A stretch of DNA of 64,000 nucleotides from Cordylochernes scorpioides (Eukaryota; Arthropoda; Arachnida; Pseudoscorpiones; Chernetidae). This document shows, in pieces, positions 29,991 through 30,539 of the stretch. How positions within the stretch are numbered: position 1 is the first letter of the stretch; each line of letters begins with the position of its first letter. Under the pieces are notes generated by a model. That model saw only the letters and a list, made by a program, of their open reading frames with translations, had not been told where the DNA came from and did no database searches. The position numbers and the translations under genes were made by a program. The stretch lies in contig CP092870.1 in NCBI GenBank assembly GCA_030710605.1, positions 18,328,684 through 18,392,683 of the forward strand, in the 5' to 3' direction.

Positions 29991-29992
29991 GT

Positions 29993-30065
29993 GCCCGGAT
30001 AGCTCAGTCAGTAGAGCGTTAGGCTTTTAACCTAATGGCCCAGGGTTCGAGCCCCTGTTCGGGCG
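29993..30065 (+). tRNA. tRNA-Lys (anticodon UUU) sequence within a retroposon
   Basis: 73 nt fold as a cloverleaf: acceptor GCCCGGA with TTCGGGC (one G-U pair), D arm with AGCTCAGTCAGTAGAGC, anticodon stem TTAGG/CCTAA around CTTTTAA, T arm with GGGTTCGAGCCCC, discriminator G, no intron. A and B boxes are intact and a 15-T terminator follows, so it could be transcribed. It closely resembles animal tRNA-Lys(UUU). Its place inside a duplication-flanked insertion means it is a retroposed copy rather than an ancestral gene; expression is unknown. Confidence 0.9.
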
Positions 30066-30106
30066 TTTTTTTTTTTTTTTGACTTGGAACAAAATACTAT
30101 AAAAGA

Positions 30107-30310
30107 ATGACAATACATCCAGATGGCACTAGAACCTATAGGACATGCAACAACTGTCCTGGTGTGGAACTAACACCTACTCACATATTCTCATGCCCAG
30201 CAATGGCCGCAGCCTTGCAGAAAATTGACATGGACCCAGAGCAGCAGCTTTACACACCCAAGATAGTGGACATTGCTGCTGCTGTGATGGAGATGCATGG
30301 AGACATCTGA
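30107..30310 (+). pseudogene. LINE-A ORF2 C-terminal fragment
   Basis: 67 codons carrying CNNCPGVELTPTHIFSCPAM, a CCHC knuckle, and ending AAAVMEMHGDI before TGA. The same end occurs at 56460-56663 and, very short, at 57569-57643. The missing parts would be endonuclease and reverse transcriptase. Confidence 0.75.
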
Positions 30311-30539
30311 GGCTCTTCATTGGACATGACAACAACAACAACAAAAGTACTGATTTTCAGATGAAATGATACTTATTTAGTACTTTTGTATGAGGAGGGT
30401 AACAACATTGTAACCGAAACTTCACACATTTTTTTATTTATTTGGATTTGGTCTTAATACTTAGTGTTTCTAATCTATAATCCAAATTGTACCTTATTAA
30501 TATGGGTATATGATAATGTTAATTTAAAGTTAAAAATAC

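What the first reader, a model, noticed from the sequence alone, without database searches (positions are those of the whole stretch)
29991..30340. A complete tRNA-Lys(UUU) fused to a LINE 3' end as one retroposed unit
Seen: perfect 10-bp target duplication ACAAAAGTAC, intact cloverleaf with A and B boxes, 15 T, then LINE-A sequence ending (AAC)n; removing it restores the MITE F target. Known: LINE reverse transcriptases can switch template to small RNAs (for example U6-L1 chimeras), and tRNA-headed SINEs share LINE tails. Inference: the switch captured an unprocessed pre-tRNA with U tail, so this is either a one-off chimera or the birth form of a tRNA-Lys SINE that still carries a usable tRNA promoter and terminator.
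Basis: partly seen in the sequence, partly recalled or inferred. Interest (0 to 1): 0.8.

Follow-up and report, generated by a model that had tools for sequence, protein, structure and literature searches.

The report
Precursor tRNA fused to LINE tail
In what appears to be a pseudoscorpion genome, a jumping gene's copying enzyme seems to have slipped from its own RNA onto a freshly made, unprocessed transfer RNA and pasted both into one spot; at least two such insertions exist there, but it is a known kind of accident and, as built, a poor start for a new mobile element.

Summary
One insertion in a MITE carries a 10-bp duplication (ACAAAAGTAC), GT, a full-length tRNA-Lys(UUU), 15 T, and the last 260 bp of a Jockey-like LINE ending in (AAC)n. 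Contig lengths point to the pseudoscorpion Cordylochernes scorpioides. In the genome this tRNA-T-LINE junction was found once. Nine identical tRNA-Lys genes differ from the captured tRNA by the same three bases; one of the nine has both the GT and an unbroken T-run (T17), making it the best parent. A second chimera was found: full-length tRNA-Phe(GAA), T7, LINE tail cut elsewhere, 8-bp duplication; the 6 nt before that tRNA are unassigned. Best explanation: during LINE integration the reverse transcriptase switched from LINE RNA to the 3' U-tail of an unprocessed pre-tRNA. It is not a SINE family. T15 lies between tRNA promoter and LINE tail, so pol III should stop before the tail (inference), and invariant G18 is mutated. 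Close precedents: R2/tRNA-Lys in Drosophila, U6/LINE chimeras, PittSINE. The variant here is capture of U-tailed precursor tRNAs by a Jockey-like LINE.

The parts
29936..29980 (+). left part of the host MITE (target)
   Evidence: joined flanks align without a gap to another MITE copy, 30663-30545, 84%
29981..29990 (+). target site duplication, left copy ACAAAAGTAC
29991..29992 (+). GT, probable end of the 5' leader of the pre-tRNA
   Evidence: GT precedes the tRNA in 9 of 29 other tRNA-Lys loci, among them the best parent L010
29993..30065 (+). tRNA-Lys(UUU), full length with discriminator G, no CCA
   Evidence: ARAGORN; Rfam RF00005 69.8 bits
30000..30011 (+). A-box region (tRNA nt 8-19); G18 is A at 30010
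   Evidence: substitution; box position by recalled consensus
30044..30054 (+). B box GGTTCGAGCCC
   Evidence: sequence; box by recalled consensus
30066..30080 (+). T15: copy of a pre-tRNA U-tail; as DNA a pol III terminator (inference)
   Evidence: sequence; best parent L010 has T17 at the same place
30081..30340 (+). 5'-truncated 3' end of LINE-A (Jockey-like, EN-RT-RNase H): end of the ORF to TGA at 30308-30310, then tail
30329..30340 (+). (AAC)n tail, the presumed priming end of LINE-A
30341..30350 (+). target site duplication, right copy
30341..30414 (+). right part of the host MITE, beginning with the duplication
56372..56697 (+). ordinary truncated LINE-A copy in the same window with a 12-bp TSD, for comparison

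Best explanation
A single LINE-A integration with a template switch. LINE-A endonuclease nicked the MITE and the (AAC)n end of a LINE-A RNA primed first-strand synthesis (inferred from tail and TSD). After about 260 nt the reverse transcriptase left the LINE RNA and resumed at the 3' oligo-U end of an unprocessed tRNA-Lys(UUU) transcript, copying it to its 5' end; second-strand synthesis closed the insert between 10-bp duplications. Shown: the joined structure, one TSD around the whole unit, homology of the joined flanks to another MITE copy, GT and T-run as in one tRNA gene, no CCA, and a second chimera with a full-length tRNA-Phe and T7. Inferred: the switch itself, capture before 3' processing (probably in the nucleus), and that the copy is a poor SINE founder because T15 should stop pol III before the LINE tail.
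For: One perfect TSD around tRNA plus LINE. By script, 23 of 47 LINE-A places (this one included) have an exact TSD of 10-14 bp and these 23 start with A or C; 13 of 47 have 6-9 bp and 11 of 47 none of 6 bp or more, so this looks like a normal LINE-A insertion. The tRNA part starts and ends like a pol III transcript; of the nine genes closest to it only L010 has both the GT and an unbroken T-run. The LINE part starts inside the ORF, as a truncated cDNA would. Second chimera at C17:17,345,951-17,346,135 (L097): TSD ACCAACCT, complete tRNA-Phe(GAA) 62.1 bits, T7, LINE-A from (A)GATAGTGG; 11 of 44 sampled LINE-A copies start their 3' part at 3881-3891, the zone of that cut. The T-runs resemble those of their gene classes: T15 against 9-25 in 29 tRNA-Lys loci, T7 against 7-11 in 6 tRNA-Phe loci. 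Precedent: U6 with L1, L2 and RTE (PMC4476161, sections 6 and 10 read); R2 with tRNA-Lys (PMC3414825, section 8 read).
Against: Pol III usually releases its RNA after a few T (recalled), so 15 U is long; it needs late release, slippage, added U, or later growth of the run. The LINE start of this chimera is also the exact base at which another LINE family inserts (L043, L045): chance, or a hint of another route. The captured tRNA has three substitutions against all nine genes (two are CpG transitions), while each of the 7 LINE bases that differ from the majority of 7 close copies is shared with at least one of them; the contrast is not explained. For tRNA-Phe no parent was found: the 6 nt TTCATC before the tRNA match none of the 6 genes read, and the 39 other scored matches (40 of 921 candidates scored) begin at the tRNA itself; those 6 nt may be leader or added bases. 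There are no RNA data.
Confidence: 0.85

Rival explanations
1. Nested insertion, then retroposition. A pre-tRNA was first inserted into a LINE-A copy by another LINE ('LINE-B', (TTG)n tail) at that LINE's preferred site, and the composite was later transcribed from the tRNA and moved by LINE-A.
For: In L043 and L045 a LINE-B sits in LINE-A with a duplication of GACTTAGAACAAAAC that begins at the base where the chimera's LINE part starts; L044 shows the same right-hand junction.
Against: No LINE-A sequence precedes the tRNA here. One search (up to 3 mismatches) gave 7 matches, only the chimera with eight T, so no donor was found. Pol III would have to cross 15 T. The tRNA-Phe chimera uses another LINE-A position. 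One of 44 sampled LINE-A copies (L095) starts at or next to this base without a tRNA.
Confidence: 0.08
2. RNA ligation: a pre-tRNA was joined to a LINE-A RNA fragment before reverse transcription.
For: RNA ligation is named as an alternative for sense-oriented chimeras (PMC13174262, section 17 read).
Against: Pol III ends carry 3'-OH, not the cyclic phosphate used by RtcB (recalled). Nothing in the sequence calls for it.
Confidence: 0.04
3. Two separate events: a tRNA gene copy and a truncated LINE-A copy that came to lie side by side.
For: Both parts exist alone in many copies.
Against: One TSD encloses both; the joined flanks match another MITE copy; the same build recurs with tRNA-Phe.
Confidence: 0.02
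4. Founder or member of an active tRNA-Lys SINE family.
For: Head and tail are the parts of a classical tRNA SINE; a switch of this kind is the proposed origin of PittSINE (PMC5729268, abstract and passages seen).
Against: One junction found; T15 between promoter and tail; G18 lost.
Confidence: 0.01

Closest known systems
R2/tRNA-Lys template jump in Drosophila pseudoobscura (PMC3414825, section 8 read)
   Same: tRNA-Lys joined upstream of a non-LTR element by a template jump
   Different: There the tRNA is mature (carries CCA) and sits at the 5' junction of R2; here it is an unprocessed precursor with a T-run, and the jump leaves the LINE inside its ORF
U6/LINE chimeras in L1, L2 and RTE clades (PMC4476161, sections 6 and 10 read)
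   Same: Pol III RNA ending in U joined in sense to a 5'-truncated LINE inside one TSD
   Different: Partner is a pre-tRNA, the LINE is Jockey-like, the animal is an arachnid
tRNA/LINE-1 chimeras in human (PMC13174262, sections 11 and 17 read)
   Same: tRNA and LINE inserted together; TSDs in the eight cases examined there
   Different: Those (n=21) are typically half tRNAs, predominantly antisense, put down to twin priming; here full length, sense, with T-run
PittSINE model (PMC5729268, abstract and passages)
   Same: tRNA head gained by template switch on a LINE-type tail inside one TSD
   Different: PittSINE became a family; this one has a terminator between head and tail and was found once
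Human pre-tRNA retropseudogenes (Schmitz et al. 2004, known only through passages in PMC4476161)
   Same: Precursor tRNAs captured by a LINE enzyme
   Different: Cited there as retropseudogenes, with tRNA retropseudogenes called tailless, not as LINE chimeras

Membership tests
LINE template-switch chimera | one TSD encloses the foreign RNA and the LINE | tested here: met
   ACAAAAGTAC at both ends; second case ACCAACCT
LINE template-switch chimera | foreign RNA upstream of a 5'-truncated LINE, same strand | tested here: met
   second case
LINE template-switch chimera | foreign part shows RNA ends | tested here: met
   Lys: GT and T-run as in gene L010, no further gene flank. Phe: T-run present, but the 6 nt before the tRNA match no gene read
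LINE template-switch chimera | enzyme shown to switch in vitro or in cells | not testable with these tools
   needs biochemistry
tRNA-derived SINE family | many copies with different TSDs | tested here: not met
   1 junction found in the genome
tRNA-derived SINE family | internal pol III promoter (A and B boxes) | tested here: inconclusive
   B box intact; A-box region carries G18A; activity not testable
tRNA-derived SINE family | no pol III terminator between head and LINE tail | tested here: not met
   T15 at 30066-30080
functional tRNA gene | cloverleaf with conserved tertiary bases | tested here: not met
   no non-standard pair marked and a score of 69.8 bits within the 65.0-73.4 of 12 gene loci, but invariant G18 is A
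Jockey-like LINE (tail donor) | endonuclease, RT and RNase H, similar to named Jockey proteins | tested here: met
   Pfam on one copy; best two of 120 rows shown are 52% identical over 99% and 88% of the query, the second named jockey of the spider Trichonephila clavipes, the first unnamed. No tree was built, so the clade is not fixed

The most novel reading that the evidence does not exclude
LINE-A prefers unprocessed, U-tailed pre-tRNAs as second template, so this genome holds a small class of 'stillborn SINEs', each blocked by the pol III terminator it copied along with its head; loss of that T-run would be the step that turns such a chimera into a SINE.
Probability: 0.4. Interest if true: 0.6.

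Novelty: new variant of a known kind. Interest (0 to 1): 0.42.

Why it matters
A proposed account of how tRNA SINEs arise needs a template switch from LINE RNA to a tRNA. Two examples, each seen once and each with a full-length tRNA plus T-run, look like the raw product of that step and suggest a plain reason why such products may fail: the copied terminator cuts the promoter off from the tail. They also suggest that the switch happens before the tRNA trailer is removed.

Tried and rejected
A template-switch hot spot at the LINE base GACTT was considered because one search gave 7 T-rich junctions there (the chimera, L041-L046). Reading the six others: L043 and L045 are LINE-B elements in LINE-A with a full duplication, L044 shows the right side of the same, L041 and L042 are copies of one locus, L046 is unexplained. 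L004 also starts there. In the sample 1 of 44 starts at or next to it (L095). I do not claim a hot spot.

Reading of L002-L008 as a separate SINE family with a shared head was dropped: they are LINE-A copies truncated at different points.

One of the two matches (C3:10,316,602) is LINE-A 5' UTR joined to its own tail, not a tRNA; it was not counted.

Pattern searches for B box plus T plus LINE-A word at four LINE positions gave 1, 2 of which one is a tRNA, 0 and 0. They need exact words and cover part of the tail and one strand order only, so 'at least two' is a lower bound.

No unusually stable RNA fold was found around the GATAGTGG stop (z 0.57, 139 of 200 shuffles fold at least as well). 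No Rfam family was credible in the LINE-A 5' UTR (one microRNA match at E 0.67, far below its gathering score). The bacterial promoter and terminator scan does not apply to this genome and was not used.

Full report
What is there. The window lies at C8:18,328,684-18,392,683 of a 2.62-Gb genome in 24 contigs. At 29981-30350 the order is: ACAAAAGTAC, GT, tRNA-Lys(UUU), T15, 260 bp of LINE ending (AAC)n, ACAAAAGTAC. ARAGORN and Rfam both call the tRNA; no non-standard stem pair is marked. Its 69.8 bits lie within the 65.0-73.4 of 12 gene loci. With the insert and one repeat removed, the flanks align to another MITE copy in the window at 84% over 119 positions without a gap.

The LINE. A 34-base piece of its 3' end (up to 2 mismatches) occurs 19,903 times. 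A near full-length copy (L077) has a G-rich 5' UTR and two overlapping frames with endonuclease, reverse transcriptase and RNase H matches. The best two of the 120 proteins shown are 52% identical over 99% and 88% of the query; the first is unnamed, the second is named jockey of the spider Trichonephila clavipes. I call it Jockey-like; no tree was built. The sample of LINE-A copies has 44 loci: the first 30 listed places plus 14 later ones, all on C1 and all with an exact 34-mer, two neighbouring places having been passed over; it is biased to well-kept copies. In it the LINE 3' parts start at scattered positions, with 11 of 44 between 3881 and 3891 of L077. With the chimera and two further window copies added, 23 of 47 places have an exact TSD of 10-14 bp, 13 of 47 one of 6-9 bp and 11 of 47 none of 6 bp or more.

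The tRNA part. A search with the tRNA and T-run scored 40 of 141 candidates; 30 loci were fetched, one of them the chimera. The 29 others are tRNA-Lys loci with T-runs of 9-25; in 17 of 29 the run follows the discriminator directly, in 12 of 29 one or two other bases come first; GT precedes the tRNA in 9 of 29. None of the 29 has LINE-A in the 150 bases read downstream; one has a LINE-A word somewhere within 1.4 kb. With up to 3 mismatches the 73-nt tRNA has ten matches: itself and nine identical genes, each at exactly 3 mismatches: G18A, C44T and T47C, the first two at CpG. Of the nine, three have GT and two an unbroken T-run; only C15:64,096,873-64,096,962 (L010) has both, with T17. It is the best parent, not a proven one. 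There is no CCA, so the captured RNA had not been trimmed and finished at its 3' end.

One copy or a family. The junction with 15 T, up to 3 mismatches: 1 match. T8 followed by the LINE start, up to 3 mismatches: 7 matches, only the chimera with eight T. B box plus T plus LINE word near this start, exact: 1 match. No tRNA-Lys SINE family was found.

A second case. The same kind of pattern at the GATAGTGG position gave two matches. One is LINE-A 5' UTR. The other (L097, C17:17,345,951-17,346,135) is a complete tRNA-Phe(GAA), 62.1 bits, with T7, LINE-A from (A)GATAGTGG and an 8-bp TSD ACCAACCT; TTCATC stands between TSD and tRNA. Of the 39 other matches scored (40 of 921 candidates), six loci were read: T-runs of 7-11, in four of six after 'tc'; each differs from the chimera by 3 bases, two of these (32 and 72) in all six; none has TTCATC before the tRNA. 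So no parent was found for tRNA-Phe and its 6 nt may be leader or added bases. Two further patterns gave nothing. At least two separate tRNA/LINE-A insertions thus exist.

Mechanism. A truncated LINE cDNA continued on the 3' U-end of a pre-tRNA explains order, orientation, ends and single TSD. U6/LINE chimeras made this way are described for L1, L2 and RTE, and R2 has jumped to tRNA-Lys in Drosophila. The long T15 is the weakest point: the RNA was released late in a long T-run, or U were added, or the run grew. That each T-run resembles those of its own gene class (15 against 9-25; 7 against 7-11) leans to the first, on few data.

Why it stayed single (inference). A SINE needs one pol III transcript with head and LINE tail. 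Here 15 T stand between them, so the transcript should end as a pre-tRNA again. G18, which takes part in the D-loop/T-loop contact and the A box (recalled), is lost too. The chimera is better seen as a stillborn SINE than as a young one.

A loose end. LINE-B elements lie in LINE-A so that their right-hand junction falls on the base where the chimera's LINE part starts (L043 and L045 with duplication GACTTAGAACAAAAC, L044 right side only). A nested route is kept as a rival at low weight: the second chimera uses another position and no donor was found.

Print. The listings showed no title or abstract on a precursor tRNA with U-tail fused to a LINE; most listed papers were not opened, and most subscription papers are not in the library. 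Human tRNA/L1 chimeras are typically half tRNAs and predominantly antisense (PMC13174262, sections 11 and 17). Human pre-tRNA retropseudogenes are cited in PMC4476161 (passage); I did not see that paper itself. [quoted passage not shown] that report was not held.

Noticed in passing
L050, L052, L053, L058, L061, L069, L073, L090; L084; pattern: 8 of 44 sampled LINE-A copies are the LINE-A 5' UTR (ending near ATGAAGAGCAA) joined on the same strand to the 3' tail at various points, like the SIDEs described for R2; in L084 the 5' UTR is inverted. The 5' UTR end occurs 6,929 times with up to 2 mismatches.
   Followed up: partly
L043, L044, L045: Another LINE with a (TTG)n tail lies in LINE-A at one base in three loci, in two of them with a 15-bp duplication GACTTAGAACAAAAC: possibly a LINE with a preferred target inside another LINE.
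   Followed up: partly
L004, L008: LINE-A tails with tandem copies of the last 90-120 bp.
   Followed up: no
L010-L038: tRNA-Lys loci of this genome carry long T-runs (9-25 T) at or just after the gene end; several share flanks.
   Followed up: partly
window 35326-35383 (-): Weak partial tRNA match (Rfam, 31.3 bits), perhaps a SINE head; ARAGORN does not call it.
   Followed up: no
window 8433-13625 (-): Uninterrupted 1730-aa ORF with Pao-type peptidase, reverse transcriptase and integrase zinc-binding matches, a BEL/Pao-like element. Described only.
   Followed up: no
LINE-A positions 3881-3891 of L077: 11 of 44 sampled LINE-A copies start their 3' part here, as does the tRNA-Phe chimera; the reason is unknown.
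   Followed up: partly
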